Below are positions 2,185-26,802 of a stretch of DNA of 33,658 nucleotides, one piece after another. The notes beneath the pieces were generated by a model. It was not told where the DNA came from. It ran no database searches and saw only the letters and a program-made list of their open reading frames with translations. Origin of the DNA: Herbinix sp. (lineage in GTDB: Bacteria; Bacillota; Clostridia; Lachnospirales; Lachnospiraceae); assembly GCA_029239365.1 (NCBI GenBank), contig JAQZBA010000004.1:1-33658 (forward strand), written 5' to 3'. A program made the translations under genes and the position numbers. The first letter of the stretch is position 1; each line of letters opens with the position of its first letter.

Positions 2185-3056
2185 TTATCACTCTCCTTTA
2201 AAAACGTTCTTTGTATAACAACGATCGCCAGAATGATAAATAATAATATAACACCAAGCGCTGCCGCTTTTCCAAACTTATTATATTGGAACGCTAACTC
2301 CAAGGATTTTACGATAACCGTAGCAGTTCTTCCGTTAGGGCCACCCTTAGTAATAACGAAGGGTTCCAAATAAGCCTGTAACGAGCCATTAATACTTAAT
2401 AAGATAGAAATTTGAAACATGTTTTTGATATTTGGGAATGTGATATGTCTTATCAAACTAAAGAAGCCAGCACCATCCACCCTGGCTGCTTCATATACTT
2501 CTCTGGAAATGGATTGTAATGCAGCAAGGAAAATAACCATAGTAAACCCTACATATTTCCAAAAGCTGATAAAAGATAATGCAAAGTTTGAACTATAATC
2601 CAAGCTAATGAAACGAATCACATGCTCTTCTAAGCCGATTACTTTTAAAATCATATTAATCGGAGAATTCGTAAAATCGTACATATAATTGAACATAAAA
2701 GCAACCGCAACGCCGTTGATGATATAAGGCATAAAAATAATCGCTCGAAATGTTTTTTTCAACTTCAAATTACTATCTAAAAGTATCGCTAAAAATAATC
2801 CAACAAACTGTTGTACAATCGCTGTGATTACATAGGCCATATTATTCCAAATAGACGATAGGTATTCTTTACCACTTAAAACTTCTTTGTAATTATCAAA
2901 CCCTATGATCTTAATGTCAGGAGACATTCCATTCCAATTAGATAAACTAATCTGGAACAGTTTATATAATGGATAATAGGAAAACAGAATTAATAGTATG
3001 ACCGGTATCAGGAGAAACCCTGTTACTGTGATTTTGTCTTTCATCTTGCTCTTCAT
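2181..3056 (-). CDS. Carbohydrate ABC transporter permease, MalF/UgpA type (mannan locus)
   Basis: A 291-residue membrane protein with six predicted membrane helices, the first at about residues 12-32 (GFLLIPVILLILFSYYPLYK, a typical start for this family). The EAA loop reads EAARVDGAGFFSLIRHITFP. It partners with the permease immediately downstream and receives substrate from the lipoprotein encoded upstream. ATG at 3056 is preceded by GAGG at 7 nt spacing. A perfect hairpin (3081-3117) lies in the 123-nt gap before it, which probably sets the level of permease mRNA relative to the binding protein. Family assignment is firm; substrate is inferred from mannanase neighbours. Confidence 0.93.
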   Translation of the reverse strand: MKSKMKDKITVTGFLLIPVILLILFSYYPLYKLFQISLSNWNGMSPDIKIIGFDNYKEVLSGKEYLSSIWNNMAYVITAIVQQFVGLFLAILLDSNLKLKKTFRAIIFMPYIINGVAVAFMFNYMYDFTNSPINMILKVIGLEEHVIRFISLDYSSNFALSFISFWKYVGFTMVIFLAALQSISREVYEAARVDGAGFFSLIRHITFPNIKNMFQISILLSINGSLQAYLEPFVITKGGPNGRTATVIVKSLELAFQYNKFGKAAALGVILLFIILAIVVIQRTFLKESDK

Positions 3057-3179: not shown

Positions 3180-4505
3180 TTATTTTACAATATCTGCACG
3201 AGCTGCAGCCCATTTTGCATTCCATTCATCGCAAAGAGCCTTTGCCTTAGCATCATCCGGTTCTAATACATAAGATAATAAGAATCCTTGATCGTCTAAC
3301 TCAATCTGGTTCTTGATATCCATAAATGCTGTCACAGTAATGTCGCTGTTTCCGGCAGGTACACCGAAGGACATTAATTCAGCCGCAAAAACATCATCGA
3401 TCTGTGCGGTAGTATCTGCAGGGATTGTAGAAACAGCCAATGCATGCTTTCCACCTTCGATCATATATTTCAAGTAAGCTTTTGCTAAATCCGGATTTTC
3501 ACAATCTTTGGAAACACCGTAGGACTTACCTGCTGTTGAATAAACATACTTTGCTTCAGGGAACGGGAACATACCAACATCTTCTTTATTAGCACCTGCA
3601 TCAACAACCTGCTGAGGGAACCAGGTCTCTATGTAGTACATACCGGCTTTACCCTGTGCCATATCTAGTTTTAACTGATCCCAGTTAGCGGACATAATGT
3701 CTGCTTCAAGATAACCTTTTTTATTCATTTCTCTAATGATGTTCATGTAGGTTAAGATAGTCTCATCATAAATTTCATCTTTATCTACATAAAGGTTCTT
3801 TCCTTTGGGATCACCATTCATTGCTAATTGTGCAATATTCCAATCACACCAGGGATAGATCGGCCAAATATCTTTAAAAGCGGTTACCATAGGAGTAATG
3901 CCTGCTGCCTTTAATTTTTCACATACAGTCCAGAACTCATCCATAGTTCTCGGTACACTTTCGACACCAGCAGCTTTAAAAGCAGCTTTATTATAAACGA
4001 TACCGGTATAACCAACGCTATCAGCGATTGCATAGATCTTTCCATCGCTACCTGTGTTATTTCTTGAGAATAAGATATCATCCCATTTAATATCCAAATC
4101 ATCTAAAGGAAGAAAATAATCTGCTAAAGTATCCGGAGTCATTCCATCAATTGACATATAGATATCAGGAGCTTCTCCACCGGAGATACGAGTAGCTACA
4201 ACTGTCTCGTAATCTTTGATTGCTTCGTATATAATTTCAGTACCTGGATTTGCATCCATAAAACCTTGTGCTAAATCTTTAAGTGTTGTATCTACAACGT
4301 TAGTCATATTCGTAGCAATAACGATTTTACCGGATAAAGCAGGAACTTCTGCCTCCTCAACCGGCTCTTCTGCTGTGTCCGTATCACTGTTTTCAGCAGC
4401 TGTAGTAGGTTCAGGATTTGTTGTTTCTTTTTCCTCTTTACCGCAAGCAGTAAATGAGGCTAAAACGAGAACAAATACTAATATAGTAGAAATAATTCTT
4501 TTCAT
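3180..4505 (-). CDS. Extracellular solute-binding lipoprotein of sugar ABC importer (mannan locus)
   Basis: A 441-residue family 1 solute-binding protein. The N-terminus is a lipoprotein signal with the modified cysteine at residue 21 (SFTAC), followed by a low-complexity acidic/Thr/Pro-rich linker and a two-lobed binding domain with typical landmarks (GGEAPDIYMS, YNKAAFKAAGV, AQGKAGMYYIETW). It would be lipid-anchored outside the membrane and deliver oligosaccharide to the two downstream permeases. I place the start at ATG 4505: AGGAG is 8 nt before it, whereas the GTG at 4511 lies only 2 nt after the ribosome site. It is the first gene of its operon, with a conserved box and -10 upstream and the mannanase terminator further upstream. 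Mannan-oligosaccharide binding is inferred from neighbours. Confidence 0.93.
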   Translation of the reverse strand: MKRIISTILVFVLVLASFTACGKEEKETTNPEPTTAAENSDTDTAEEPVEEAEVPALSGKIVIATNMTNVVDTTLKDLAQGFMDANPGTEIIYEAIKDYETVVATRISGGEAPDIYMSIDGMTPDTLADYFLPLDDLDIKWDDILFSRNNTGSDGKIYAIADSVGYTGIVYNKAAFKAAGVESVPRTMDEFWTVCEKLKAAGITPMVTAFKDIWPIYPWCDWNIAQLAMNGDPKGKNLYVDKDEIYDETILTYMNIIREMNKKGYLEADIMSANWDQLKLDMAQGKAGMYYIETWFPQQVVDAGANKEDVGMFPFPEAKYVYSTAGKSYGVSKDCENPDLAKAYLKYMIEGGKHALAVSTIPADTTAQIDDVFAAELMSFGVPAGNSDITVTAFMDIKNQIELDDQGFLLSYVLEPDDAKAKALCDEWNAKWAAARADIVK

Positions 4506-4569
4506 TTTCACATCTCCTATTATTCTTTTTTTACTTGTATCTTACTATCAAGTTGCAACTCTTAATTGT

Positions 4570-4622
4570 ATAATACATGATTTCATGGATGTTTGAAACA
4601 GCCGTTTTTTGTATTTCTGTAC
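4570..4622 (-). promoter_or_regulatory. Mannan-regulon promoter of the importer operon: conserved box plus -10
   Basis: The 15-nt box GTACAGAAATACAAA (complement of 4608-4622) is followed after exactly 32 nt by TATTAT (complement of 4570-4575). The same box and spacing occur before the GH26 and GH130 genes. Sequence just after the box (GGCTGTTT) is also similar to that at GH26 (AGCAGTTT). The -35 position holds only TTTCAA, so the promoter looks activator-dependent, consistent with an AraC-type regulator bound next to RNA polymerase. Box conservation is seen; regulator identity is inferred. Confidence 0.75.
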
Positions 4623-4646
4623 ATATCTTTAGATAATCTAATCCAT

Positions 4647-4672
4647 AAAAGCTGGTGTAATCATACACCAGC
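4647..4672 (-). terminator. Intrinsic terminator after the giant mannanase gene
   Basis: Perfect 9-bp arms (4651-4659 and 4664-4672) with a 4-nt loop, followed on the minus strand by TTTTAT. It lies 55 nt after the mannanase stop and before the importer promoter, so the two are separate transcription units. Confidence 0.85.
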
Positions 4673-4726
4673 CCCTTTGGTACTCTTATCGAAAAGTGTG
4701 TTTGTCCCACACCTTTTGAACTAAAG

Positions 4727-7700
4727 TTATTTCTTAATAATAAGTTTCTGTCCAACACTGATTTTATTTGGATCTTCGATATTATTAAACTTGAGTAGTT
4801 CCTTTACAGTACATCCATTATTTCTGGCAATCGTGCTTAATGTATCTCCCTTTTTCACTACATAAGTTATTGTAGTTGTTACGGAAGTGGATGCTTTATC
4901 TGTTACAATAGCTTTTTCTTTTGCAGAAACGACTACTTTAAACTTAACAGATACATCTCCTACCTGTGCAACCACATAATCAGTACCTACTGATTTTGCA
5001 GTAGCTTTACCGGTAGTTTTGTTGATTACTACTACGGATTTCTTAGTTGTTTTCCAGGTGATTTTATCTGAATCAACATCATATCCTTTTGCAGTGAACG
5101 TAAAGTTTTGACCTACCTTCATCTTTGCTTCTGATTTCGTAAGCTTGATATACGGATTTTGTGTATTCTTTACAGTGATGGTAGTAACAAAAGATTTCGC
5201 GATTCCATCGATCGTTACAGTTGTTGTAATTTTGGTATTACCTACCTTTCTTGCAACAACCCTGCCACTACTTGAAACCTCTGCAATTGCCTTATCACTT
5301 GATCCATAGGATACCGTCAGGTCAGACAATTTATTATCAACAACACCTTGTAACAATTCAGGTAAAACAACCTTTAAACTTACTACCTTCTTACTGTTGT
5401 CATCTAAATAAAGAGTCTTACTCTCAGGATTAACTGTAATACCTACATGTCCATCTTCTAGAAGAACGTTTTCATCCATAACAATTACATAGTCCGATGC
5501 ATGCGTAAATAATAACTCTACGGATCCGTCATCATTAACGATACCTGCGGACTGTAGCTCTAGTGTCTTTGTTTCAGGATTATAGTAGAACAAGTTAGCT
5601 ACTTTACCCATGTTATCCTTGTTCATATTAAACTTAAGAGTAGCTTTAAATCCAAAATTACCACTATAGGAAAGCGATATTTGACGTATCTCTTTACCGG
5701 CGAAGGTATCTGTCGCATCGCTCGGTACATTCTTTGTATCTAATTTCACTCCCAAATCGATTGTTTCAAAGCTTTCTACACCTTCAAGATCCTTGGTATC
5801 AATGATCCATTGAATGCCATCTCCTAAATCAAGCGTTACCTTCTTATCAAGTCCTTTCATGCCTTCAAGGAAGTCTTTAGGAAGTTTGGTATTGCCCTTC
5901 ATATCAATTATTACTTCTGCTGCTGTAGAATTCTTTAATGCAGAAACTGCATCATCAGCTTCCAGAGGATTCTTTCCAACTACTGGAGCTGTAGGAGTTC
6001 CACTGTTACCGGGATATTGACCAGGGTTAGTACCAGGATCGGTTGGATCTGTTGGATCTGTAGGATCTGTAGGATCTGTAGGATCTGTAGGATCTGTAGG
6101 ATCCGTTGGATCGGTTGGATCCGTTGGATCGGTTGGATCCGTTGGATCGGTTGGATCCGTTGTAAGGTCACCTGGATCTATACCGGGATAAATCACTGTA
6201 ACACTATTTCTTACTAAGCTAATATCATCAATTGCAAGTCCTTTAGAGCCAATATCTCCATATATTACAACCGTAATATTGTCGACATCAACAGAGATAT
6301 TAGATAATGTAACCTTGATTGCTGAATTAGCTTGCAGACTGCCCAATACACTCTCCTCTACAAGAACTGTTTCACCAGCCATGACTTTTAACTTCACGTC
6401 ATTTACTGTTCCGTCAAATATTCTGATCTTTGCAGAGAAATCATATGCACCATCTTCTACTCCGGTTACATTCTGGGAGAGAGTAAAGGTATATGGTTTA
6501 TCGGCATAACCAACAAATGTACCATTCTCGCCCTTAATCGGTGACCAGCCATCACCACCTTCATAGGTTGTATTCCAATCGGATGGTAAGTTTGGCCATT
6601 CTGTTCCACTTAAAGCAAAATCTCCATTTTTAATCAATGGTATATCCTCTGCTTTAACAAATTTAACATTATCAATCGTAAGACCCTTCGATCCAATATC
6701 ACCGGCAAGAACGATTGTAACAATATCCATTCCCTCTTCGATAAGGATATCACCTAGAACAGCGTCACGACCTGCCTGAAGTTCACTTAATAAATCACCT
6801 TGAATTACAATCCCAATTGCAGAGCCGGTGGCAGTAATTGCCGATCCAGTGACTGCAATTGCTGAGCCGGAGACTACAATTGCAGATCCAGTGACAGTAC
6901 CATTCACAACCCCCAATATAACAGAATTAACCGTACCGTCATTCAAAGTAACATCGGCTGATAATTCATAAATACCCGGCTCTAATCCCGCTATATTTTG
7001 GGATAAAGTAAAAGTATAGGGAGTGGATGCATAACCAACAAATGCGCCATTCTCACCCTTAATCGGTGACCATCCATCTCCTCCTTCATAGGATGCAGAC
7101 CAATCTGTCGGAAGATTTGGCCATTCACTACCTTTTACAGTGAAATCACCATTGACAGCATTGTTCCTTGGCGGTAGATCCGCAACTTTTATAAATGCAA
7201 CATTATCAATTGCAAGTCCTTTTGATACAATATCTCCTGTTATCTTAACTGTTATCGTATCCATACTCTCTTCTACGATAATCTGATTTAATACTGCCTC
7301 GTCACCTGCCATAATATTACCTAATAAGTCATTGGATGCAATAAGACCGGTAGGTGAGTCTACACTGAATACTACAGAATTAATTCCACCGTCATTCGGC
7401 GCAACATCTGCGCTTAATTCATATACACCTGGCTCAATATCGGTAATTGTCTGTGATAGATCAAAGGTATATGCCGCAGATGCATAGCCTACAAACTTAC
7501 CATTTTCACCCTTAATCGGTGACCAACCATCTCCACCTACATAGGATGTTTCCCATCCAGTCGGTAAATTTGGCCAAGTTGCTTCTACTTCTGTGAAATC
7601 ACCATTGTCCGCAAGGTTTAATTCTCCAACCTTGTTCAATTCCACATCATCCACCATGTATACAAGTCCACCTGCAGGAGCATCAGCAAAGAAGTAGATT

Positions 7701-10700
7701 GTAATTTGGTTATTGCTTACTTCAATTGTCTTACCTAAGGATAATGTTTTTTCTGTATCCTGAGTATCCAAAAATGAAGACAAAACTGTTTGAGAGCCGG
7801 ATATTAACCCCATTCTTGCATTATTGAAGCCGCTCTTCACTTTCATTTTTGCTTTTAAGGTATAAATACCGTTAGGAACAGTTAAGGTCTGATACAATCT
7901 TCCTTTATAAGCGTCCATACTCCAACTAACAAAGGAATCATTCTCCAACTTATTCGCAACACCATCGGAAACCGTAAAGCCATTGATGTTCCAATATTTA
8001 AAAGCATCGGAGAAATCTGCATTTCTAGCATAGTTATCATATACTACATCCACCGGTTTATCATTACCCGGTACTCGAAGATTAACCGTAATTTGATCTG
8101 TCTGTATCGGATCCAAGTTATAATTATGGTACAGGATAGAAGCAGATACTTCAATACCGTCGGTATTATAGATACCGCTTTCTGCCGTAAGCTCATAGCT
8201 CCAGGTTCCATCTTCCTTTACAGGAACATTCACTGTCTTGGTTCCAATCTTTAATGTAATATACTTCACATAATTAGCAGTACCTTCCAAGGAATACGGG
8301 AATGTTGTAATTGCCCCTGCATCCGGTGTTATAATATCAACCGTTGCAGTAGCCAAATCAGCAACAAAATTAGCTCCTTTGATATCATCAAAGTAAATTG
8401 TTCCTGTTTCTGCACCACCATCTGCTTTATTGGTGTAAATAGAGAATTGAGTAATATTCAAATTCTTATTTAGGGAGCCTTCTCTCGGATCCCAGCTTGG
8501 AGCTACAAATGAGTCAAATGGCATATATAGCTCGTTGGCGCCTATTCCATTCATATATCCAATTGCTTCCCAGCTTAATCCGTCTGAAGTCTTAACCTGG
8601 AAGGTCAAGGAATTGCCGGAACCATCACCAATATACCAAATCTTAAATCCATCATAATCCTTCAGATTTAAGTAATCCATATTCTTAGTAGCACCTGCGT
8701 AACCTTTGCCCTGATAATCATATTCAAATTTGAGACCATAGGAGCCCTCAGATTTTTCATTCGGATCCAGTGTTAAGTTAAGTGCCCCACCACCTGAATT
8801 TCTTGAATAATTATTCTGTAATAAGGAGTTAGCACCGTTGTAGCCTTCATAATCGTCCACCTTGGTAAGGCTTCCTACATAGATATTATCAACGGTTATA
8901 ATAGAAGCAGCAACTTTGGTATACGCTAACTTCACACCATAATTACCGGTAAAGGAATTAGCTCCATCCAGACCGATTGCTATCTGAGTTGCATCCTTAA
9001 TACCCATGGTAAAGCTCTTCACTTCAGAGAAGTCTTGAGCTGCTTCCGGAGTACTTGGAGTCAATTCGGAAAATTCGAATTTAACCATCTCTCCCGTATC
9101 ACTTGTCAATACTTTTTCTCCGGTCCAAACAACATTATTCTTATCCATTAAGGAAAGAGTTAATGCATTGCCGGAACGATCGCCCTTCACCCATGCAAAT
9201 AATACATCATACTCCGTAAAGTCTGCATTTGAAAGAGTCTTTGATACAGTCGAATCCTCTTTGGTATAAGCTGAATTTATTTTAGAATCACTTCCAAAAT
9301 AGAATTCACCATCTTCCAACACATTTACCGGGGATTTATCCTGCATCGGAAGTCTCTTTGAACCGGAAGCCACCTCTACAGATTTAACAACAACATTACC
9401 TTGTCCTGCAGGATAGGATACTCTTACAAAACGGGTTGGTGTTGTAACATCTACATTAGCAAAAATGTATTTTGTATATTCGCCAACCTCTTCAGTATTA
9501 GTAGATGCAATTACTTTCGTATAAGTAACACCATCCATGGATTCTTCTATTATAGGTTCAGCACCATTCTTAGCATAAGCGGTTACTCTATAGGAAGTCA
9601 TATCTGCTGTTGTTCTATAAATCAGAGTAGCTGTATTTCCATCCGATGTAGCAAGACCTGTAACCTCACCGTCAGTTACAAAACTTAAGTTAGAGGATTT
9701 AAACGCATACATAGCCTGATCAGATGCAAAGGTTTCGTCCTGTATTAAAATATCCTTCGCCAAATTCTGTGGAACATAAATTTCATCGGGATTTCCTGAA
9801 TATTCATATACTGTTTTCACAGAGTCTAGCATGCATCCATTGTTTGCTGCTACATAAACCCTGGTAAAGTATGTGCCTTCCGGTAATGCATCTACCTTAT
9901 AAATAGATCCGGAGCCTGTAACTTCTACCTCTGTATAAACAATATCATTACCGGAGACCATAACCTTTGGTGCGACTTCCGGAGAATTCTTTGTTGTTAT
10001 CTCTATTGAAGTCATCGGAATAGTTGCATTATATGTAATGTAGCCTTCTGTCTCAGTGGTATTTTGAAGCACACCGCCAGAAACTGTTACATTCTCTGAA
10101 TGATCATAACTATAAACGTTACGGATTTCGGTTGGATTTTGATCAGAGCTTGATACACTAATCATATCCAGATTATCCACAACAATATGATTTGCTTCTT
10201 CAACGGTTACAACATTTGACCATAAACCAACTCCAGATTCATTGCATGCTCTTAAACGATATGAGTATACTTGCCCAGTAATTGCAGTTTCATCATGGTA
10301 ACCGGCAATACAAGGGATCTCTTTGTTTTCCCAGTTACGCCCCGAATCATAAACATAATCTGATTCATCAGCAATCATTACCCAATCACCTTCAACAGGA
10401 CTGGTTCCATCAGCTCTTTGAATTTCATACCATGCGCCACCAACTACACCGCGCCATTTGATATCTCCTACCGTAGTAATACCATATAACAGCGGTACCT
10501 CCTCTGTCTCCGGAGCCGGTATCGGCAAAGTCCTTGCTTCTTCTAAAGTGGCTGCATCTCCGTTCATTAACGAAGCATAGGCAAAAATGCTTCTTACGAT
10601 TTTTGTTTCATCGTAATAATCACCGGAAGGGAAGCCCGGCCAGTGATATGCTGCCCAGTTTCCAGGGTCTTCCGGATGATAGAAGTATCCATACCCGTCT

Positions 10701-11833
10701 TTGTGAGCTCTTAAACTCCACATCATCATACCGTTTGTACCGACTTCAAGACCGGCATCAAACACCTTATTAACATCCTCCACTTTAGTGTACGCGCCGA
10801 ATTCACCAAGGATAAAAGGTTTCCCCGGTAAAGGATTACCTTCATTATCCAGTGTTGGAGTTTCACCAGTATTATGAGACAGTATGGTATCCTTTTTTGT
10901 CTTATCCGGATAGTAACCGGTATAATAATGGCTTCCTAAGATATCTACATTAGTATCCTTTAAGGATTCTGCGGATGCATCCATCTTACCGTCTAAAACC
11001 AACTGATGGATACCGGTGCTCTTAATATGAGCAGCGATATCGGTAGTCCATTCTTGATGGAATTTCGGATTAGCTGTATCATCATAGGCAGCAAGCTCAT
11101 TTCCTGTTTCCCAACAGATAACTGCAGGATCATCCATGTATTTAATACCGGATACAGAATTTGTTCTCTCCATCAAATGTGATATCATCTGCTTAAAATA
11201 ATTTCTCGCGGTTGCATTGGTGTAGAACTGCCAAGCATTTGGATCCAAGCTGGAGGTGGTATTAATCGGAATACCGGCCAACTTAACATAACCGTCCATA
11301 CCACCAATCCAATGCCAGTGATCGACCAAAGGAACAATGACACGAACTCCGTATTGATTCGCAAGTGCCAACAAACTATCCAGTTTATCTAAAGCACTCT
11401 CATTAAAGATTAGGTTACCCTCTGAGTCAACACCTGTGACATAAGCTCTTCCATCATTATTTCCATTTGCAACCGGAATGGTATAGGTTCTTGTAACTTT
11501 TCCTCCCATAGCCTTTATTGTCTTTAATGCATTTGCTTGTTCCCATGGATTGTCTGAGGTAGCTTGTGGGTAATTTAATGACACAAACTTTAGCTCATTC
11601 TCCCCATCCATTAATTTTGTTCCGTTCACTGTGATGAAATCAGTAAAAACGGTTTGGAACTCTTTTCCGCCCGTGGTATCCAAATCAATGTCCCCAAACT
11701 TGGATAAAAAAACGGTAGTTGAATCAGCTGCACTTACTACTTTTGTTACGCCTGTATTAGGGCTGACTAATCCAACAAGAAAAGTTAATAATAGCATTGA
11801 GACAACTAATCTTTTCCCCTTCTTTTTTTTCAT
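4727..11833 (-). CDS. Giant secreted multi-module GH5 beta-mannanase with C-terminal LysM
   Basis: A 2368-residue secreted enzyme, start ATG 11833 with AGGAGA upstream. A signal peptide ends near VSA-AD (about residue 35). Residues about 37-430 are a GH5 catalytic domain: acid/base Glu246 in GNEL, nucleophile Glu344 in ILGEFG. A fibronectin III-like domain (about 445-550) follows, then several beta-sandwich regions likely to bind carbohydrate (about 550-1400). Three tandem modules (about 1405-1553, 1554-1730, 1731-1878) share GGDGWSPIKGENG. A (Thr-Asp-Pro)n linker (about 1891-1933) precedes a domain of unknown type (about 1950-2115), two Big2 domains (about 2120-2305) and one LysM (2323-2368, YVVKKGDTLSTIARNNG) that should hold the enzyme on peptidoglycan. 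No dockerin or sortase motif was seen. It is probably cotranscribed with the GH130 gene 66 nt upstream. Mannanase activity is inferred from GH5 plus GH26 and GH130 neighbours; other GH5 activities are possible. Confidence 0.9.
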   Translation of the reverse strand: MKKKKGKRLVVSMLLLTFLVGLVSPNTGVTKVVSAADSTTVFLSKFGDIDLDTTGGKEFQTVFTDFITVNGTKLMDGENELKFVSLNYPQATSDNPWEQANALKTIKAMGGKVTRTYTIPVANGNNDGRAYVTGVDSEGNLIFNESALDKLDSLLALANQYGVRVIVPLVDHWHWIGGMDGYVKLAGIPINTTSSLDPNAWQFYTNATARNYFKQMISHLMERTNSVSGIKYMDDPAVICWETGNELAAYDDTANPKFHQEWTTDIAAHIKSTGIHQLVLDGKMDASAESLKDTNVDILGSHYYTGYYPDKTKKDTILSHNTGETPTLDNEGNPLPGKPFILGEFGAYTKVEDVNKVFDAGLEVGTNGMMMWSLRAHKDGYGYFYHPEDPGNWAAYHWPGFPSGDYYDETKIVRSIFAYASLMNGDAATLEEARTLPIPAPETEEVPLLYGITTVGDIKWRGVVGGAWYEIQRADGTSPVEGDWVMIADESDYVYDSGRNWENKEIPCIAGYHDETAITGQVYSYRLRACNESGVGLWSNVVTVEEANHIVVDNLDMISVSSSDQNPTEIRNVYSYDHSENVTVSGGVLQNTTETEGYITYNATIPMTSIEITTKNSPEVAPKVMVSGNDIVYTEVEVTGSGSIYKVDALPEGTYFTRVYVAANNGCMLDSVKTVYEYSGNPDEIYVPQNLAKDILIQDETFASDQAMYAFKSSNLSFVTDGEVTGLATSDGNTATLIYRTTADMTSYRVTAYAKNGAEPIIEESMDGVTYTKVIASTNTEEVGEYTKYIFANVDVTTPTRFVRVSYPAGQGNVVVKSVEVASGSKRLPMQDKSPVNVLEDGEFYFGSDSKINSAYTKEDSTVSKTLSNADFTEYDVLFAWVKGDRSGNALTLSLMDKNNVVWTGEKVLTSDTGEMVKFEFSELTPSTPEAAQDFSEVKSFTMGIKDATQIAIGLDGANSFTGNYGVKLAYTKVAASIITVDNIYVGSLTKVDDYEGYNGANSLLQNNYSRNSGGGALNLTLDPNEKSEGSYGLKFEYDYQGKGYAGATKNMDYLNLKDYDGFKIWYIGDGSGNSLTFQVKTSDGLSWEAIGYMNGIGANELYMPFDSFVAPSWDPREGSLNKNLNITQFSIYTNKADGGAETGTIYFDDIKGANFVADLATATVDIITPDAGAITTFPYSLEGTANYVKYITLKIGTKTVNVPVKEDGTWSYELTAESGIYNTDGIEVSASILYHNYNLDPIQTDQITVNLRVPGNDKPVDVVYDNYARNADFSDAFKYWNINGFTVSDGVANKLENDSFVSWSMDAYKGRLYQTLTVPNGIYTLKAKMKVKSGFNNARMGLISGSQTVLSSFLDTQDTEKTLSLGKTIEVSNNQITIYFFADAPAGGLVYMVDDVELNKVGELNLADNGDFTEVEATWPNLPTGWETSYVGGDGWSPIKGENGKFVGYASAAYTFDLSQTITDIEPGVYELSADVAPNDGGINSVVFSVDSPTGLIASNDLLGNIMAGDEAVLNQIIVEESMDTITVKITGDIVSKGLAIDNVAFIKVADLPPRNNAVNGDFTVKGSEWPNLPTDWSASYEGGDGWSPIKGENGAFVGYASTPYTFTLSQNIAGLEPGIYELSADVTLNDGTVNSVILGVVNGTVTGSAIVVSGSAIAVTGSAITATGSAIGIVIQGDLLSELQAGRDAVLGDILIEEGMDIVTIVLAGDIGSKGLTIDNVKFVKAEDIPLIKNGDFALSGTEWPNLPSDWNTTYEGGDGWSPIKGENGTFVGYADKPYTFTLSQNVTGVEDGAYDFSAKIRIFDGTVNDVKLKVMAGETVLVEESVLGSLQANSAIKVTLSNISVDVDNITVVIYGDIGSKGLAIDDISLVRNSVTVIYPGIDPGDLTTDPTDPTDPTDPTDPTDPTDPTDPTDPTDPTDPTDPTDPTDPGTNPGQYPGNSGTPTAPVVGKNPLEADDAVSALKNSTAAEVIIDMKGNTKLPKDFLEGMKGLDKKVTLDLGDGIQWIIDTKDLEGVESFETIDLGVKLDTKNVPSDATDTFAGKEIRQISLSYSGNFGFKATLKFNMNKDNMGKVANLFYYNPETKTLELQSAGIVNDDGSVELLFTHASDYVIVMDENVLLEDGHVGITVNPESKTLYLDDNSKKVVSLKVVLPELLQGVVDNKLSDLTVSYGSSDKAIAEVSSSGRVVARKVGNTKITTTVTIDGIAKSFVTTITVKNTQNPYIKLTKSEAKMKVGQNFTFTAKGYDVDSDKITWKTTKKSVVVINKTTGKATAKSVGTDYVVAQVGDVSVKFKVVVSAKEKAIVTDKASTSVTTTITYVVKKGDTLSTIARNNGCTVKELLKFNNIEDPNKISVGQKLIIKK
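6036..6161 (-). repeat. 9-bp tandem repeat encoding the Thr-Asp-Pro linker of the mannanase
   Basis: Fourteen consecutive 9-nt units begin GGATC on the plus strand (complement encodes Thr-Asp-Pro). Units come in blocks: a run of GGATCTGTA copies, then alternating GGATCCGTT and GGATCGGTT. This block pattern points to slippage or unequal exchange. It encodes a flexible spacer between the binding modules and the wall-anchoring C-terminus. Confidence 0.9.
6199..7622 (-). repeat. Three tandem copies of a carbohydrate-binding-like module within the mannanase
   Basis: Coding repeats at roughly 7175-7622, 6640-7172 and 6199-6640. Each starts with NGDF, contains WPNLPxxW, GGDGWSPIKGENG and GSKGL(A/T)IDNV or a close variant, and looks like a jelly-roll module of CBM4/9 type. 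DNA across GGDGWSPIKGENG is nearly identical between copies, so the duplication is recent or kept uniform by exchange. The binding function is inferred. Confidence 0.85.
6816..6899 (-). repeat. Four 21-bp tandem repeats encoding a GSAI heptad inside a mannanase module
   Basis: Four units (6816-6836, 6837-6857, 6858-6878, 6879-6899) encode seven-residue repeats TVTGSAI, VVSGSAI, AVTGSAI and TATGSAI. They lie inside the second of three otherwise similar modules; the first and third modules lack them. The insertion keeps the reading frame. Confidence 0.88.
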
Positions 11834-11899
11834 TACACTTCTCCTTTCAATTTATATTTAAATAAGAAATTATAAAATTGTTATATTATAAATTCTTCC

Positions 11900-13108
11900 T
11901 TAAATTTCAATTTGATTGCCTTTTGAATCGAAGGTACGGATATAATCCACAATCTCGTCAAAATAAGCCCAGGCAATTCCCACCTTTTGATCCGCTGCTC
12001 CGTATGACATAATCAATTCATCTTCTTTCACTATTCCTCCTGTTGTAAAGATACAGGGGCATGCGAACTTGTCCGGTAATTCCCAATCCTGTTTTGCATA
12101 GATCAGTCGCGTAGAGCATCGATGTACGATCTTAGGGAAATTGTTTTCCTGTTCCTTTAAAATCATAAAGGATTGTGTATATCCAAACTCAGGTAACTTT
12201 TTACCATGATACGAAACCAGCCACTCTCCGTTGTTTAGCTCTATGGGAGGAAAGCTGGCTCCAATTCTTTCATCTTCCCAATCAAATATCCCAATAGCCA
12301 GTAATTCATGGGTTGCCTTGTCAGTTACAAAATCCCTGAAATTGTCTGCTGCCGCTATAAACATGGAAGGTTTATGAATCCCCTTTCCTGTTTCAAAGGC
12401 ATCCGGGTTATCCGGTCTATGAAGCATTACATACTGTAACTTTCCGTTTATTTTCATTTTTTGGGGGAAGAAAAAGACATCCCTGTTGTCTGTGAGATTA
12501 CCATCGGTTAAAGTACATACATATTGAAAGGCATGATCATAATCTCTTTCTTTCAACTTATTTAGATTCAATTTAAATAAAACAGTGGATGTGTCATTCT
12601 TATAGGCTGTCGTTCCAAAAGGATTATCTTCTGTCATTGCCCAATCCGGTAAATTATCCCTTCTCTTATCGCCCTCCCAGTAAGGTCCCGGCGGAAACAT
12701 ACGGCAGGCCGTGGTTAAGTAATATTCTTCCTCCACCATAAAAATTCTAGGGTCTTCGATGCACCCATTGGCACAATTAACCACCATATTACCCTGATCA
12801 TCTTTAATATACAGCTTATCCATCTCGTATTCCAAAGCCGGAGCTAAGGCCGGCCTGCTAAAATCAACATCCCAAGTCTCCCCGTTATCTTCACTTTTTG
12901 CATATCCCAAAAAAATAGGATATGGATCGGATAATCCTCTCAAATTTTTATGATGCCAGGGTCCTGTTGCCCGAAATAACATATGAATTGTATTAGATTC
13001 CGGATCCTTTACAATCGCCGGATTTAACACCATTGTATCTGCCCAGCTGCAACCCAATTGAGGTACTATGACAGGCTCCTTTGAATATCGAATGATTGGT
13101 TTCTTCAT
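11900..13108 (-). CDS. GH130 beta-mannoside phosphorylase
   Basis: A 402-residue cytosolic enzyme without signal peptide. GH130 landmarks include SRPALAPALEYEMD, NGCIEDPRIF (carrying the family's catalytic Asp region) and NLTDNRDVFFFP. GH130 enzymes split beta-1,4-mannosyl bonds with phosphate to give alpha-mannose 1-phosphate. The length is closer to 4-O-beta-mannosyl-glucose phosphorylases (about 390 residues) than to the shorter mannooligosaccharide phosphorylases (about 330), but the subfamily is not certain. I choose ATG 13108: AAGGAG is 8 nt upstream and the conserved promoter's -10 lies at 13141-13146, so an upstream ATG at 13150 would fall before the transcript starts. It is the first gene of a unit with the giant mannanase, linking import and intracellular phosphorolysis to secreted hydrolysis. 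Confidence 0.92.
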   Translation of the reverse strand: MKKPIIRYSKEPVIVPQLGCSWADTMVLNPAIVKDPESNTIHMLFRATGPWHHKNLRGLSDPYPIFLGYAKSEDNGETWDVDFSRPALAPALEYEMDKLYIKDDQGNMVVNCANGCIEDPRIFMVEEEYYLTTACRMFPPGPYWEGDKRRDNLPDWAMTEDNPFGTTAYKNDTSTVLFKLNLNKLKERDYDHAFQYVCTLTDGNLTDNRDVFFFPQKMKINGKLQYVMLHRPDNPDAFETGKGIHKPSMFIAAADNFRDFVTDKATHELLAIGIFDWEDERIGASFPPIELNNGEWLVSYHGKKLPEFGYTQSFMILKEQENNFPKIVHRCSTRLIYAKQDWELPDKFACPCIFTTGGIVKEDELIMSYGAADQKVGIAWAYFDEIVDYIRTFDSKGNQIEI

Positions 13109-13140
13109 TCCAACTCTCCTTTTTGTAAGTATTTTTCTGT

Positions 13141-13193
13141 ATAATATCATAATCAGATATCAAAAGTAATTGCACCACTTTGTATTTATATAC
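13141..13193 (-). promoter_or_regulatory. Mannan-regulon promoter of GH130-mannanase operon: box plus -10
   Basis: Box GTATATAAATACAAA (complement of 13179-13193), then exactly 32 nt, then TATTAT (complement of 13141-13146) within TATTATACA, a string also found at the importer promoter. Expected transcript start is near 13134, giving a leader of about 26 nt with the GH130 ribosome site. The -35 region is poor (TTACTT), as expected for an activated promoter. Confidence 0.75.
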
Positions 13194-13206
13194 AATTCTT
13201 TGTTTC

Positions 13207-13259
13207 GTAAAAAACCGACATATTAATTATGCCGGTTAGACACAACTGCTATGTCGGTT
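13207..13259 (-). terminator. Terminator after the GH26 mannanase, with a duplicated upstream arm
   Basis: On the minus strand the distal arm TATGTCGGTT (13213-13222) runs into TTTTTT. It can pair with a near arm AACCGGCATA (13228-13237, one G-U pair, 5-nt loop) or with a perfectly matching far arm AACCGACATA (13250-13259, 27-nt loop). Either way it makes an intrinsic terminator about 80 nt after the GH26 stop and before the GH130 box. Confidence 0.82.
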
Positions 13260-13338
13260 ATTCCATTTATCATATAGTAAATTCTTTTTAGTCAAATTTT
13301 ATTATTTTAAACAAAAATACCATACTTCATCTTATATT

Positions 13339-14739
13339 CTAATTGAACTCCGGCAGCTCATTTTGAACGATAACATTCTGTGCCCAATACAGATTCTGAA
13401 TCACTGAATTAGAATTATAATCAAATGTCATCTCCGCCCAGCTCATAACAAATACCCACCTAGGTTGCGAAGTCAATAAATTTGCAGTCGGAAGAGTAGC
13501 ACATTCTCCGATGGCAATCGGTTTATTTCCGGCTACTGAAAGTGCTGTGTTATATTTTTGGGTCGTAAATCCGTCTCCGTTATACACATCCAGCGCAAAG
13601 ATATCCCAATAATCATTACCCGGATTATATCCGCTCCAATTATAATCTAAATCCTGCATATCCCATACCCAGATAAGATTGGAGAGTCCTTTTATATTCT
13701 CCAGGTAATCATGGGTCAGTCTGTATAACGCCGCTGTACCATTGCTCCCAGATCTTCCTGCCCACCAGAATATTCCTTGATTCATCTCGTGGAACGGACG
13801 GAATAATACGGTAACACCATTATCCTCAAGATATTGAAGATAAGTAGCATAGGTGTCCAAACGTCTCTTCCATGCATTATTTAAGGAACCACCATTGGTT
13901 ATTAAATCATTCCATTGATTATCGGAAAGTTCACTTACAACGCCACCTTCCCAGTTTCCTGGTTCTGATTGCGTCGGTGGCACAACATGAAGCATCAGTT
14001 GTACAATTGACCCATTATCCCATTGGCGTTTGCATTCATAAATCATCGTCCAACGGTTAGCTACATCAGAAGATGAGAATAAGAAATCTCCGCTCCAAAG
14101 TGCCGGATATTGTCCTGTAATACTATATGCCCGCTCTGTCTGTACATCCGGATCCGAATTTGGCTCTCTGTTATGAATACCAATTATGGTTTTGCTGCCA
14201 CTGATGCTGTTGATATAATCCATTACACTACTAGTCCCGCCGGAACCACCGGAGCCGTAAATCTCAAACTCCCATAAGGAAAAACCATAAGTCGTAGCTC
14301 TCAGTATGCAATAAACCTTTACATATCTTGCTGTCGTAGCGGTGAAGGAAATGGTCTGCGTCCCTCCGGTACTGTTGTAGTTTGAATGCACTGTCGTCCA
14401 GGTAGAGTTATTTGTTGAAGTCTGAATTTGGTATTGTGATGCATACGCAGCTTCCCAAGCCAATTTCACTTGTGAGACTGTATAATTTGTACCTAAGTCT
14501 ACAATGAAGTTCTGGTTATTGGCATAAGCCGATGACCATCTTGTATTACCATTTGCGTCTACTGCATTTGATCCTGGGTACGAGGATGATTCCGTTGATG
14601 ATACCGTAACTGATTTACCATACGCCAGATTCTCTGCTGCTTTTGCCGTTTTTGTATTAAAATCTGTCCCAATGTTTAGTAATAACATGCCAATGATTAA
14701 GGTAGTAAATAGTGATAACTTTATTACTTTACACCTCAT
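13339..14739 (-). CDS. Secreted GH26 beta-mannanase with N-terminal discoidin/CBM32-like domain
   Basis: A 466-residue exported protein. The signal peptide ends near AKA-AEN (about residue 34). Residues about 36-163 form an F5/8 type C (CBM32-like) domain (SNAVDANGNTRWSSAYANNQNFIVDLG, shortened: AVDANGNTRW then VDLG). A Gly/Ser linker leads to a GH26 domain (about 170-460) with acid/base Glu318 in FRPFHEMN and nucleophile Glu412 in AIGECAT. GH26 endo-mannanases cut beta-1,4-mannan chains outside the cell, yielding oligosaccharides for the importer. ATG 14739 has GGGAGG 7 nt upstream. It is a single-gene unit with its own conserved box and terminator. Endo-mannanase is the usual activity of this family; a few GH26 members act on other beta-glucans. 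Confidence 0.92.
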   Translation of the reverse strand: MRCKVIKLSLFTTLIIGMLLLNIGTDFNTKTAKAAENLAYGKSVTVSSTESSSYPGSNAVDANGNTRWSSAYANNQNFIVDLGTNYTVSQVKLAWEAAYASQYQIQTSTNNSTWTTVHSNYNSTGGTQTISFTATTARYVKVYCILRATTYGFSLWEFEIYGSGGSGGTSSVMDYINSISGSKTIIGIHNREPNSDPDVQTERAYSITGQYPALWSGDFLFSSSDVANRWTMIYECKRQWDNGSIVQLMLHVVPPTQSEPGNWEGGVVSELSDNQWNDLITNGGSLNNAWKRRLDTYATYLQYLEDNGVTVLFRPFHEMNQGIFWWAGRSGSNGTAALYRLTHDYLENIKGLSNLIWVWDMQDLDYNWSGYNPGNDYWDIFALDVYNGDGFTTQKYNTALSVAGNKPIAIGECATLPTANLLTSQPRWVFVMSWAEMTFDYNSNSVIQNLYWAQNVIVQNELPEFN

Positions 14740-14769
14740 AATATACCTCCCATTTATTATTGTAATTCA

Positions 14770-14822
14770 ATTGTATATGGAAATAATTAATAGAAAAACT
14801 GCTATTTTTTGTATTTCTATAC
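14770..14822 (-). promoter_or_regulatory. Mannan-regulon promoter of GH26 gene: box plus -10
   Basis: Box GTATAGAAATACAAA (complement of 14808-14822), then exactly 32 nt, then TACAAT (complement of 14770-14775). The box differs from the importer copy at one base and from the GH130 copy at one base. AGCAGTTT follows the box, matching GGCTGTTT at the importer in six of eight positions. Confidence 0.75.
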
Positions 14823-14861
14823 CAAATTTTGTTTCCGTGAATTCCCAACATTAGGAGGCAT

Positions 14862-14974: not shown

Positions 14975-16540
14975 TTAATATACTGTATTGCGGTATTCCT
15001 TTGGCGACATGCCCACTTTCTTCTTGAATGCTCTTCCAAACGATACCGCATCCTCATAACCAACCATGCATCCAATCTCATATACTTTTATGATCGGATC
15101 CCGTAATAGTTTTCTTGCTACCTGCATTCGAACTTCCAATAAATAATCCGAGAAGTTTGTCCCTACTTCTGTCTTAAATAAATTACTAAAATAGGAAGCA
15201 TTTAATTCAACATGCTCTGCTACATCATTTAATGTTATATTATCTTTATAATTTTCAGAAATATATTTCTTAGCAAGCTCAATTCTTATTTTACTTCTCT
15301 TTTCTCTCTCATTTTTGATGAATTCAATTACATCCTTGATAATGTGATTCATATAGGTTTTTAGTTCATTATATGTATTTATATTATCTAGGAAGAACAC
15401 ATAATCATGAGCACAGCAAAGAATTGCCTCTTGAAAATCCTTAACCTGAAGTATTAAGAGATCAATCATATCTCTCATATGTTTTCTAAACTTGGCGGAA
15501 TCAATATAGCATAGGTCAATAAATATTTGGTCCATAATTCTTTTGGAAGCAATATAATCATATAAGACGATATTTTGAACGAGCTTATTGAGGCTTGGTT
15601 CTAAGTTATAGTTAAAATCGATTATTTTTTTATCAATCTCATTATATTCAATGCGATGATTTTTACCTAAGTAGAACCGGGCATCCGCAGCTTTTTGCGC
15701 TTCGTGATATGCTATTTTTGTATTTTGAATCCCATAATAAACATTACCGACACCAAGGGTATAGGTCGTATCTTCTATCCCTACGCTGCAAATTACAGCA
15801 TATATTTCTTCGGAAATAATTCTTGTATTTATTTTGTCATCAGAATAAATCAAGTAAACGATCTCTGTATTATTAATATATTGCATCATCTGAAAGGTTT
15901 CGATTGTCTCTACTTTATCTTCAATTTTAGAATATATGGTATCCAGAGCACCTTCGTATTCCATGCGCTCCATCTTCTGTTTATAGAAATTATCAATACG
16001 GCATATCATTACAAAATAATAGGATTTGTCCAAATTCAGACTAATCTTACTGAGAATTTTTTCTTGTTCCTCTTTATTTTTGACCGGCGTATGAAATATC
16101 TGCTTTAATGTATTGGCTACTATTAACTGATGGCCTTCCTTACGGTTATTTTTCTCCTTAGCATCAATTTCTAAAGCATCCTGAGTCCTTTTTACAACCT
16201 CGATTAAATCATTTTTATTGATTGGTTTCAGGAGATAATCAACTGCCCCATCAATAAATGCATTTCTGATATATACAAATTCATCATAACCGCTTAATAC
16301 GATTACTTTCGTTAACAGGTAGCGTTCTTTCACTCTCTTAATCAACTCTAGCCCATCCATAATAGGCATACGAATATCAGTAATTAACAAATCTACTTTA
16401 TCGCATTCCTCCATATATTGAAGAGCTAATTCACCATCGGAGGCCTCACCGACAACTGTACAATTAAGGTTACTTTTTTCAATAATACTTCGTAAACCTT
16501 TTCTAATTATCTCGTCATCATCAGCTATAAATACATTCAT
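14975..16540 (-). CDS. YesN-type AraC response regulator of the mannan locus
   Basis: A 521-residue cytosolic transcription factor. The receiver domain covers about residues 2-120, with acidic pocket Asp7-Asp9, phosphoacceptor Asp55 (LLITDIRMP) and the conserved Lys in LLKPI. A long middle region (about 150-400) is typical of large YesN proteins. Two AraC helix-turn-helix motifs occupy about 420-520, ending in VGYEDAVSFGRAFKKKVGMSPKEYR. I choose ATG 16540 (MNVFIADDD): GGAGGG lies just upstream and the receiver begins directly; ATG 16552 has a weaker site. It is divergent from the YesM kinase at 16713, its likely partner. The conserved boxes before GH26, GH130 and the importer are its probable targets. 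Confidence 0.93.
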   Translation of the reverse strand: MNVFIADDDEIIRKGLRSIIEKSNLNCTVVGEASDGELALQYMEECDKVDLLITDIRMPIMDGLELIKRVKERYLLTKVIVLSGYDEFVYIRNAFIDGAVDYLLKPINKNDLIEVVKRTQDALEIDAKEKNNRKEGHQLIVANTLKQIFHTPVKNKEEQEKILSKISLNLDKSYYFVMICRIDNFYKQKMERMEYEGALDTIYSKIEDKVETIETFQMMQYINNTEIVYLIYSDDKINTRIISEEIYAVICSVGIEDTTYTLGVGNVYYGIQNTKIAYHEAQKAADARFYLGKNHRIEYNEIDKKIIDFNYNLEPSLNKLVQNIVLYDYIASKRIMDQIFIDLCYIDSAKFRKHMRDMIDLLILQVKDFQEAILCCAHDYVFFLDNINTYNELKTYMNHIIKDVIEFIKNEREKRSKIRIELAKKYISENYKDNITLNDVAEHVELNASYFSNLFKTEVGTNFSDYLLEVRMQVARKLLRDPIIKVYEIGCMVGYEDAVSFGRAFKKKVGMSPKEYRNTVY

Positions 16541-16591
16541 ATGTCCCTCCATGATCCCTGATTTGAGCCATTCATTCCAATCGCTTATTTA

Positions 16592-16712: not shown

Positions 16713-18500
16713 ATGATAAAAAAACTATTAAAAATATATAATAATAAATCCATCCTTTTTCGTTTGTCTTTCATAATACTATTTTTATTTGTTGCATTGA
16801 TAACAATACCTATTATGAATAATATGATTTTTACGACGGATAAGAAAAACTCAATCTATAGTACAGTGAATCAAACAAATCATCAAGCCTTGGATAAAAT
16901 AGATGACTACCTTATTGATATCTCAAATATTACCAAAATACCACTTACCTACAAACAAAACGATAAATCCTACCTTAGAAATCTCGAAGAATTTAATAAA
17001 ACGAATACTTTTACCCGTGATTTCCAAGTAATGAGTGAGCAGATGTTTGAGGAAATCTTTGCTTATAAACGTAATGTAGAGGCATGTTATGTATATAACC
17101 TATCAGGAATAGGTGATTATAAAGTTAGAACACCTGTATATAAAATTATGAATCCGATAAATCACCCCTGGTTTCAAGATAGTATTGACCTATTCGGAAA
17201 ACCGGTCATTCTGGACACCTATGAGCTTCCCTATGTATCCCATGAGAAAAATCCGGTGTACGTTTTTGGAGTTTCAAGAGGAATTGTACGCTTCGAAAGC
17301 AGTAAGGTAATTGGAATCCTTGTTGTTAATACTAGAACTGATTTTTTTCGTGAAGTATGTGATAATATGAAGATAACAGAAAACCACAGAATTATCATTT
17401 TACATGACGACTATGTGATCTATGATACACAAGAGGAGAATATAACTACGATTGCTTCCAACGACCTACTAAAAATCAACTGGAATACACCGGATACCGA
17501 TAAAACTATAGATATTAATGATCAAAAATATATGTCTTCAACGTTACTATCAGATTATAGCGGTTGGAGAATCATCAGCTTAATACCTCATGAAGAAATG
17601 TTTCATGATTTAAAAACCATGCAAAAAACAACGATACTTGTAATCACTTTGGTAAGTTCAATTTCATTATTATTAGTGTTTATCGTTTCTGCCCAAATCG
17701 TTCATCCACTAAAAAAACTTGCTTCGTTGATGCGACTAGCAGAAAACGGTGATTTTAATATTAAAATAAATGTGAATAATAAAGATGAAATAGGCACCTT
17801 AGCACAATCCTTCAATTCGATGACAAGTAAGATAAACGGTCTGATACAGGAAGTATATTTAGAGCAAATCAGACAAAGTGAGTTGGAGCTTCAAATGCTC
17901 CAATCGCAAATAAATCCGCATTTTATATATAATACCCTTGAATCCATCAGTATGATGGCAATCATCCATGATGATAATACCACCTCAGAGATGGCTTCTA
18001 ATCTAGGCAGTATTCTGCGATATGGAATTAATAACACAAAAAAAGAAGTGACTGTGCGCGAAGAACTTGATAACCTTGAAAAATATATTTATTTGCAGGA
18101 TATCCGCTTCCATTCGATTTACACTATTATCATTAATGTTGACCCCGAACTATATTCAATACACATTATTAAACTTATTTTACAACCAATCGTGGAGAAT
18201 GCAATCTATCACGGTATGAAGGATATCCGTTCTGATGGAAAAATCATAGTAAATGGTTATAAGCAAGATAAAAAACTACTTATATTTGAGATTATAGATA
18301 ATGGTAAGGGAATGACTGACCAGTTAACAAAAGATTTAAATGACTATATCAATGATAACAATAATTTATTCAACAGCATTGGACTTAGAAATGTAAATAA
18401 AAGAATCAAGATTAAGTATGGGGATGAATACGGGTTAGAAATCCAAAGCACAGCAAATTCTAACACAACTGTAATCGTCAGATTACCCCTTGCAACATAA
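16713..18500 (+). CDS. YesM-type sensor histidine kinase of the mannan locus
   Basis: A 595-residue membrane kinase, the only real plus-strand gene in the window. A first membrane segment (about 18-40), an extracytoplasmic sensor of Cache type (about 41-300), a second membrane segment (about 305-330), HAMP (about 330-385), then a His_kinase domain with phosphorylated His403 in QINPHFIYNTLE and a HATPase domain (VENAIYHG N-box; DNGKGM and GLRNVNKRI G-boxes). It should sense extracellular sugar, or its binding protein, and phosphorylate the divergent YesN regulator. Start ATG 16713 has GAGG at an unusually long 14-nt spacing; no better in-frame start exists. Its end converges with the second locus across a shared hairpin. 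Confidence 0.93.
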   Translation: MIKKLLKIYNNKSILFRLSFIILFLFVALITIPIMNNMIFTTDKKNSIYSTVNQTNHQALDKIDDYLIDISNITKIPLTYKQNDKSYLRNLEEFNKTNTFTRDFQVMSEQMFEEIFAYKRNVEACYVYNLSGIGDYKVRTPVYKIMNPINHPWFQDSIDLFGKPVILDTYELPYVSHEKNPVYVFGVSRGIVRFESSKVIGILVVNTRTDFFREVCDNMKITENHRIIILHDDYVIYDTQEENITTIASNDLLKINWNTPDTDKTIDINDQKYMSSTLLSDYSGWRIISLIPHEEMFHDLKTMQKTTILVITLVSSISLLLVFIVSAQIVHPLKKLASLMRLAENGDFNIKINVNNKDEIGTLAQSFNSMTSKINGLIQEVYLEQIRQSELELQMLQSQINPHFIYNTLESISMMAIIHDDNTTSEMASNLGSILRYGINNTKKEVTVREELDNLEKYIYLQDIRFHSIYTIIINVDPELYSIHIIKLILQPIVENAIYHGMKDIRSDGKIIVNGYKQDKKLLIFEIIDNGKGMTDQLTKDLNDYINDNNNLFNSIGLRNVNKRIKIKYGDEYGLEIQSTANSNTTVIVRLPLAT

Positions 18501-26758: not shown

Positions 26759-26802
26759 ATTATAATGAGTTGCTATAACTCATAGATTTTTGAAATGGTG
26801 TA
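26759..26802 (-). promoter_or_regulatory. Promoter of second-locus importer operon with regulator-like motif and dyad
   Basis: TATAAT (complement of 26759-26764) lies 22 nt after the motif TACACCATTTCAAAAA (complement of 26787-26802), which is 13 of 16 identical to that before the dehydrogenase operon. A perfect 7-bp inverted repeat, ATGAGTT/AACTCAT with a 5-nt centre (26765-26783), sits directly upstream of the -10. The stretch 26797-26811 also resembles the mannan box in 10 of 15 positions at the same 32-nt distance. Confidence 0.6.

What the first reader, a model, noticed from the sequence alone, without database searches (positions are those of the whole stretch)
4570..14822. One 15-nt box at a fixed 32-nt distance from -10 defines a three-promoter mannan regulon
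GTATAGAAATACAAA (GH26), GTACAGAAATACAAA (importer) and GTATATAAATACAAA (GH130-GH5) each end exactly 32 nt before TACAAT, TATTAT and TATTAT. A second patch follows the box at a fixed place (AGCAGTTT, GGCTGTTT, TGCAATTA), consistent with two AraC DNA-binding motifs touching successive turns. All three promoters lack a good -35. The three genes' products form one pathway and the only nearby regulator is the YesN protein at 14975-16540. I do not know a published description of this box.
Basis: partly seen in the sequence, partly recalled or inferred. Interest (0 to 1): 0.75.

Follow-up and report, generated by a model that had tools for sequence, protein, structure and literature searches.

The report
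Mannan-gene control site for YesN
Four sets of mannan-digestion genes in this bacterium, and matching genes in three relatives, carry the same paired DNA site at one exact distance from the promoter, most likely the landing place of a neighbouring sensor-controlled activator; such sites have been hard to find for this kind of sugar switch.

Summary
Three GTAYAKAAATACAAA boxes lie exactly 32 nt before a -10 hexamer at GH26, GH130-GH5 and importer promoters, the only exact copies in the 3.8-Mb assembly. Relatives sharpen it: the box is the junction of two half-sites of a 20-bp direct repeat, YAAA-N5-GYW. A half-site pattern that ignores the -10 finds 16 places in 211 kb; all 16 have a -10-like hexamer at 32 nt (shuffles: mean 0.92 places, none with the hexamer). 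In all 908 kb held it finds 5 more, none with that hexamer. The 16 lie in four genomes with an orthologue of the adjacent YesN: 4, 2, 5 and 5. One, outside the window, heads a transporter and GH2 beta-mannosidase cluster. Model searches of 34 genus and 397 family genomes gave no other strong site (not every candidate was scored). Best explanation: YesM/YesN activates these genes as an AraC-type class II activator. Binding and activation are inferred. It is a new, unusually well-defined member of a known kind. A palindrome at the importer start suggests a second regulator there.

The parts
14820..14831 (-). GH26 promoter, half-site 1 (CAAA-N5-GTA), centre near -62.5 if the -10 begins at -12
14800..14811 (-). 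GH26 promoter, half-site 2 (CAAA-N5-GCA), centre near -42.5
14770..14775 (-). GH26 -10 TACAAT, 32 nt after the box
13339..14739 (-). GH26 beta-mannanase with F5/8 type C domain
   Evidence: Pfam; PDB GH26 matches
13191..13202 (-). GH130 promoter, half-site 1
   Evidence: conserved in L049
13171..13182 (-). GH130 promoter, half-site 2
   Evidence: conserved in L049
13141..13146 (-). GH130 -10 TATTAT (TGA before it)
11900..13123 (-). GH130-family protein, probably a mannoside phosphorylase; solved relatives are distant, so exact substrate is open
   Evidence: Pfam; PDB (best E 4.7e-14, C-terminal half)
4727..11833 (-). 2368-aa protein: GH5-type mannanase domain near the N-terminus, CBM11, LysM
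   Evidence: Pfam (CBM11, LysM; no GH5 model at E 0.001); PDB GH5 mannanase matches within the first 444 residues
4620..4631 (-). Importer promoter, half-site 1
   Evidence: conserved in L049, L101, L107
4600..4611 (-). Importer promoter, half-site 2
4570..4575 (-). Importer -10 TATTAT
4550..4560 (-). AGTTGCAACTT palindrome 9 nt after the -10; operator-like second element, seen at the importer only
3180..4511 (-). ABC importer solute-binding protein
   Evidence: Pfam
2181..3056 (-). ABC importer permease 1
1291..2184 (-). ABC importer permease 2
14975..16552 (-). YesN-type response regulator (receiver, GGDEF-like, AraC HTH); start perhaps 16540, where the G233 and G473 proteins begin
16713..18500 (+). 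YesM-type sensor histidine kinase, divergent partner
   Evidence: conserved in L049, L101, L107

Best explanation
Each promoter carries an operator of two direct half-sites, consensus YAAA-N5-GYW, 20 bp apart and locked to the -10. A dimer of the phosphorylated YesN response regulator, made active by the YesM kinase on sensing mannan fragments, binds the two half-sites side by side on one face of the DNA. The near half-site (centre about -42.5) covers the -35 region, which has no good hexamer, so YesN touches sigma factor and/or the polymerase alpha subunit there and recruits polymerase to a -10 that often has G at -14 (class II activation). It thereby switches on beta-mannanases, the oligosaccharide importer, mannoside phosphorylases and, elsewhere in the genome, a transporter and beta-mannosidase gene cluster. 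Shown: the operator, its spacing, its conservation, its confinement (among genomes searched) to those with a YesN orthologue. Inferred: binding by YesN, phosphorylation, the signal, activation.
For: Same element and 32-nt spacing in G021 (same genus, 2 sites) and in G233 and G473 (another genus, 5 each). A matrix from the 8 G233/G473 sites ranks the 5 window and G021 sites 1-5 in 45.6 kb, both strands; the reverse matrix places 8 of 8 in the top 10 of 145 kb, with two control-locus hits among them. Direct-repeat lag 20 is best of 27 lags (z 3.0, p 0.002 before correction for 27 lags). Half-site pattern without a -10: 16 places in 211 kb, 16 with a -10 at 32; shuffles mean 0.92 and 0; over all 214 loci held, 908 kb with overlaps, 5 further places, 0 with a -10 at 32. 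TAnnnT stands at 32 nt in 15 of 16 sites and in at most 3 at any other spacing from 18 to 55. The G233 GH26 site was first seen by the pattern alone. C188 proved to head transporter and GH2 beta-mannosidase genes. Strong sites (31 bits or more) in none of the other 18, 32 and 395 genomes (sets overlap). Four fetched loci with a GH130 orthologue but no YesN orthologue have none. YesN DNA-binding domain 75% identical between G000 and G233 where the linker is 31%.
Against: No binding, expression or start-site data. Importer orthologues co-occur with the site as fully as YesN does, so an unlinked regulator is not excluded. The pattern was shaped on 13 of the 16 sites, and those 13 had been picked with a -10 at 32 nt; by the looser measure (two mismatches to TATAAT) spacings 30 and 37 also reach 6 of 16. 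At the importers a -10 at 37 nt is possible (G233 has TATAAT there). G233/G473 sites are near copies and the G021 sites are orthologues of window sites, leaving nine distinct promoters by genus. The second half-site is imperfect in ROK, GH130b and SBPb promoters. No site lies between yesN and yesM. Model searches scored only the best 13-150 first-look candidates per genome, and one search used stricter filters. Other sigma-70-like pairs lie near the GH26 start (14783-14756, 14766-14738).
Confidence: 0.82

Rival explanations
1. The operator is real but is bound by another AraC-family or response regulator (for example the one at 20874-21617 or one encoded elsewhere).
For: The genome holds many YesN-like proteins (16 matches scored, 137 first-look candidates), and one site lies on another contig, C188.
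Against: In the fetched G021, G233 and G473 loci the window's second regulator matches only YesN itself (the G021 contig is only 11.9 kb); YesN/YesM sit beside the main cluster of sites in all four genomes.
Confidence: 0.12
2. YesN binds these sites but represses, or acts both ways.
For: The near half-site covers the -35 region, a place repressors also use.
Against: No good -35 for polymerase alone (1-4 of 6 matches in 16 sites); in PMC8579813 three of five AraC-type two-component regulators had tandem sites upstream of the promoter and were judged activators (passages read).
Confidence: 0.05
3. The shared box is only promoter sequence inherited by duplication, with no binder.
For: The promoters could be copies of each other, and the DNA is AT-rich.
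Against: Between G000 and G021 the operator is an island in mostly diverged upstream DNA; different genes in another genus keep the same columns and spacing.
Confidence: 0.01

Closest known systems
AraC-type two-component regulators of Caldicellulosiruptor (MosSQ, AviRS, BxgRS; PMC8579813, passages read)
   Same: Two-component regulator beside a CUT1 sugar importer; tandem-repeat sites upstream of the promoter for three of five, judged activators; MosSQ was predicted to activate a mannose-oligosaccharide transporter.
   Different: There the search assumed 21- or 32-bp periods; here the period is 20. Here one site code serves importer, mannanases, phosphorylases and a beta-mannosidase cluster. 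Its motif letters are in figures that are not held, so no letter comparison was made.
XydS/XydR and XuaDSR of Ruminiclostridium cellulolyticum (PMC3572039 discussion part 1 and passages; PMC12175519 one passage)
   Same: Same type of system for hemicellulase and transporter genes. The XydR paper's table of shared sequences includes CAAAA-N14-CAAAA and CAAAA-N15-CAAAA, listed at -39 from the predicted -10: periods 19 and 20, close to the CAAA repeat here.
   Different: XydR authors stated no consensus and did not single out that repeat; XuaDSR authors could not identify conserved sites. Here the site is sharp and the spacing constant.
MelR, RhaS, AraC and MtlR operators (MtlR: PMC4514859 passages; the others recalled)
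   Same: Direct half-sites upstream of the promoter; MtlR uses two 15-bp blocks, -72 to -58 and -50 to -36. MelR sites 20 bp apart at -62.5 and -42.5 are recalled, from no call.
   Different: One-component sugar-binding regulators with other half-site letters.
LacI-type mannan regulators GlyR2 (Clostridium thermocellum) and MosR (Caldicellulosiruptor) (passages)
   Same: Control of mannan genes.
   Different: LacI-family regulators, not two-component AraC-type activators.

Membership tests
YesM/YesN-type two-component system with AraC-family response regulator | Receiver plus C-terminal AraC HTH, and a His_kinase/HAMP sensor beside it | tested here: met
   kept side by side in four genomes
AraC-family class II activator operator | Two direct half-sites about 20-21 bp apart | tested here: met
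   lag 20 best of 27, p 0.002 uncorrected; half-site pattern
AraC-family class II activator operator | Fixed phase to the -10, near half-site over the -35, weak -35 | tested here: met
   16 of 16 at 32 nt; best -35 matches 1-4 of 6; start sites not mapped
AraC-family class II activator operator | Protein binding and activation shown | not testable with these tools
   no experiment
Mannan-utilisation regulon | Target genes encode mannanase, mannoside phosphorylase, beta-mannosidase, oligosaccharide importer | tested here: met
   by family membership; importer substrate not tested
Mannan-utilisation regulon | Induction by mannan | not testable with these tools
   no expression data

The most novel reading that the evidence does not exclude
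The geometry is a general code: YesN-family regulators read a 20-bp direct repeat always held in the same phase to the -10, with only the half-site letters changing, so the targets of the many orphan YesM/YesN systems of Clostridia could be read from sequence alone. Two leads: in G348, another genus with no YesN orthologue at E 1e-57, a site upstream of a solute-binding protein gene keeps half-site 2 and TATACT at exactly 32 nt, half-site 1 being poor; and the XydR target promoters share a CAAAA repeat of period 19-20 listed at -39 from the -10, which I had overlooked at first and which moves my odds from 0.30 to 0.35.
Probability: 0.35. Interest if true: 0.68.

Novelty: new member of a known kind. 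Interest (0 to 1): 0.52.

Why it matters
Here the site, its spacing and its target list are sharp enough for a direct binding test, and they tie an importer, secreted mannanases and phosphorylases to one sensor.

Tried and rejected
The bare 15-nt box as the recognition unit: rejected, because the GH26 promoters of G233 and G473 and contig C188 keep the half-sites but not the middle of the box. In the window the box at 3 mismatches was not significant (14 against 8.6 expected; 7 of 100 shuffles).

GH130 orthologues as a guide to more sites: G016, G368, G313 and G283 have 62-64% GH130 orthologues but no YesN orthologue in the fetched locus and no site.

The search for related loci with YesN gave 2 loci of 28-33% identity, not orthologues. 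Apart from G021, listed YesN matches in the 117 genomes were 33% identical or less.

Weak hits: of the R1 hits above C188 I fetched only G368:C70 and G000:C96, which carry no half-site pair; C188 ranked lower (15.9 bits) and was fetched because its match was full length and its contig was known to carry a GH130. G410:C33:9862 shows no sugar gene beside it; G348:C21:42940 is kept as a lead. Five further half-site places in the loci held have no -10 at 32 nt and were dropped.
Full report
Observation. Exact copies of the degenerate box occur three times in the 3.81-Mb, 433-contig assembly, and all three are these. With up to two mismatches the box alone is no commoner than its reversed control (76 against 74); with spacer and -10, up to three mismatches, 8 against 1. 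Three-way sharing of 13 of 15 columns was not reached in 200 shuffles (maximum 11).

Relatives. In 117 genomes, this one included, YesN has one orthologue besides itself (G021, 70%; the next listed are 33% or less); in 397 family genomes at E 1e-57, one besides itself (G233, 44%); in G233's genus (2 genomes), one more (G473, 45%). G021 keeps kinase, YesN, GH130, importer and a second GH130 in order, without GH26 between YesN and GH130. Aligned with the window, its GH130 and importer upstream regions are mostly diverged except for the operator, the -10 and, for the importer, a palindrome and the ribosome-site end. G233 and G473 keep YesM/YesN beside GH130 and importer, with other neighbours.

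Operator. A scan with box, second patch and -10 over 11 loci gave 13 sites: 3 window, 2 G021, 4 G233, 4 G473, and none in the four control loci. Their alignment shows a third patch, YAAA, 6-9 nt before the box. The lag test picks 20 bp (z 3.0, p 0.002, uncorrected for 27 lags; lag 21 p 0.04). Written as two YAAA-N5-GYW units with period 20 (second unit slightly relaxed), the pattern finds 16 places in 13 loci, 211,025 bases, both strands: the 13, plus GH26 promoters of G233 and G473, plus C188 of the own genome. All 16 have a -10-like hexamer at 32 nt (at most two mismatches); 60 shuffles gave a mean of 0.92 places (maximum 3) and none with the hexamer. Over all 214 loci held (908,072 bases, overlaps counted) the pattern finds 21 distinct places; the 5 extra ones have no -10 at 32 nt.

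How circular is this? The pattern was shaped on the 13, which had themselves been chosen with a -10 at 32 nt. Two of the three later sites were first seen as weak hits of models that include the -10; the G233 GH26 site was first seen by the pattern alone. The cross-genus matrices are the cleanest test: ranks 1-5 one way; 8 of 8 within the top 10 the other way, with two control-locus hits between them.

Geometry. If the -10 hexamer begins at -12, the half-sites span -68 to -57 and -48 to -37, centres -62.5 and -42.5. The best -35 matches are 1-4 of 6 in the 16 sites; G stands at -14 in 12 of 16 and TG at -15/-14 in 5 of 16. This is how a class II AraC-type activator sits; the MelR positions that I compare with are recalled. 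PMC4514859 (passages) gives MtlR two 15-bp blocks at -72 to -58 and -50 to -36. At spacing 37 nt, TAnnnT stands in 3 of 16 sites, so the importer -10 is not certain.

Regulon. In G000: GH26; GH130-GH5; importer; and C188 (13082-13146), heading two permeases, a solute-binding protein and a GH2 beta-mannosidase, adjacent and on one strand (5n6u match E 3.6e-100). In G233 and G473: ROK-GH130, importer, a second importer, GH26, and a second GH130. In G021: GH130 and importer. Model R1 (13 sites; 22 genomes) scored those 13 at 33-50 bits and nothing else above 20.2. R2 (16 sites) gave, in 34 genus genomes, 6 hits at 31-42 bits and nothing else above 19.1, and in 397 family genomes 9 hits at 31-48 bits in G000 and G233 and two at 23.4 in G348 and G410. 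Model members score high by construction; the point is the emptiness elsewhere. These searches scored the best 150 or 13 first-look candidates per genome, and one search used stricter filters. The G000 assembly is 81% complete, so targets may be missing.

Regulator. YesN has receiver, GGDEF-like and AraC domains; YesM has HAMP, His_kinase and HATPase. G000 against G233: receiver 50%, linker 31%, DNA-binding domain 75% identical, as expected if the operator is kept. In the relatives' fetched loci the window's second regulator matches only YesN. The pattern finds no site between yesN and yesM.

Literature. In seven answered searches of the open-access library I recognised no paper on this site from titles and abstract starts; the box letters were not searched, and most subscription papers are not held. 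PMC8579813 (passages) predicts tandem-repeat sites for AraC-type two-component regulators and ties MosSQ to a manno-oligosaccharide transporter. PMC3572039 (discussion part 1 and passages) states no consensus for XydR, but its table of shared sequences has a CAAAA repeat of period 19-20 at -39 from the -10. PMC12175519 (one passage) could not identify conserved sites for XuaDSR. PMC10766802 was seen in passages only. So the kind is known and the member is new.

Verdict. The host family is not named by the tools; I take it for a Lachnospiraceae-like member of Clostridia, by inference only.

Noticed in passing
window 4550-4560 (-): Palindrome AGTTGCAACTT exactly 9 nt after the importer -10, kept at the same place in G021, G233 and G473. 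3 copies in the own genome, control 0; over 34 genus genomes 43 against 17 control, perfect palindromes counted on both strands. Looks like an operator for a second regulator of the importer.
   Followed up: partly
window 26759-26783 (-): Upstream of the second solute-binding protein gene (25337-26686) an inverted repeat ATGAGTT-ATAG-CAACTCAT (26765-26783) stands directly before TATAAT, with arms like the palindrome above.
   Followed up: no
window 20874-21617 and 21643-23445 (-): A second, shorter AraC-type response regulator and kinase, flanked by importer genes and a GH30-like enzyme; not seen in the relatives' mannan loci fetched.
   Followed up: no
G000 C188 (L141, L145): Two permeases, solute-binding protein and GH2 beta-mannosidase under the same operator, on a contig that also carries a GH130.
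   Followed up: yes
L212 5940-5995 (G348): In another genus, a site about 170 nt upstream of the likely lipoprotein start of a solute-binding protein keeps half-site 2 and a TATACT at 32 nt while half-site 1 is poor; possibly another YesN-type regulator with the same geometry.
   Followed up: partly
window 4727-11833 (-): 2368-aa mannanase-type protein with a long DPT-repeat linker and a C-terminal LysM domain, suggesting cell-wall display.
   Followed up: no
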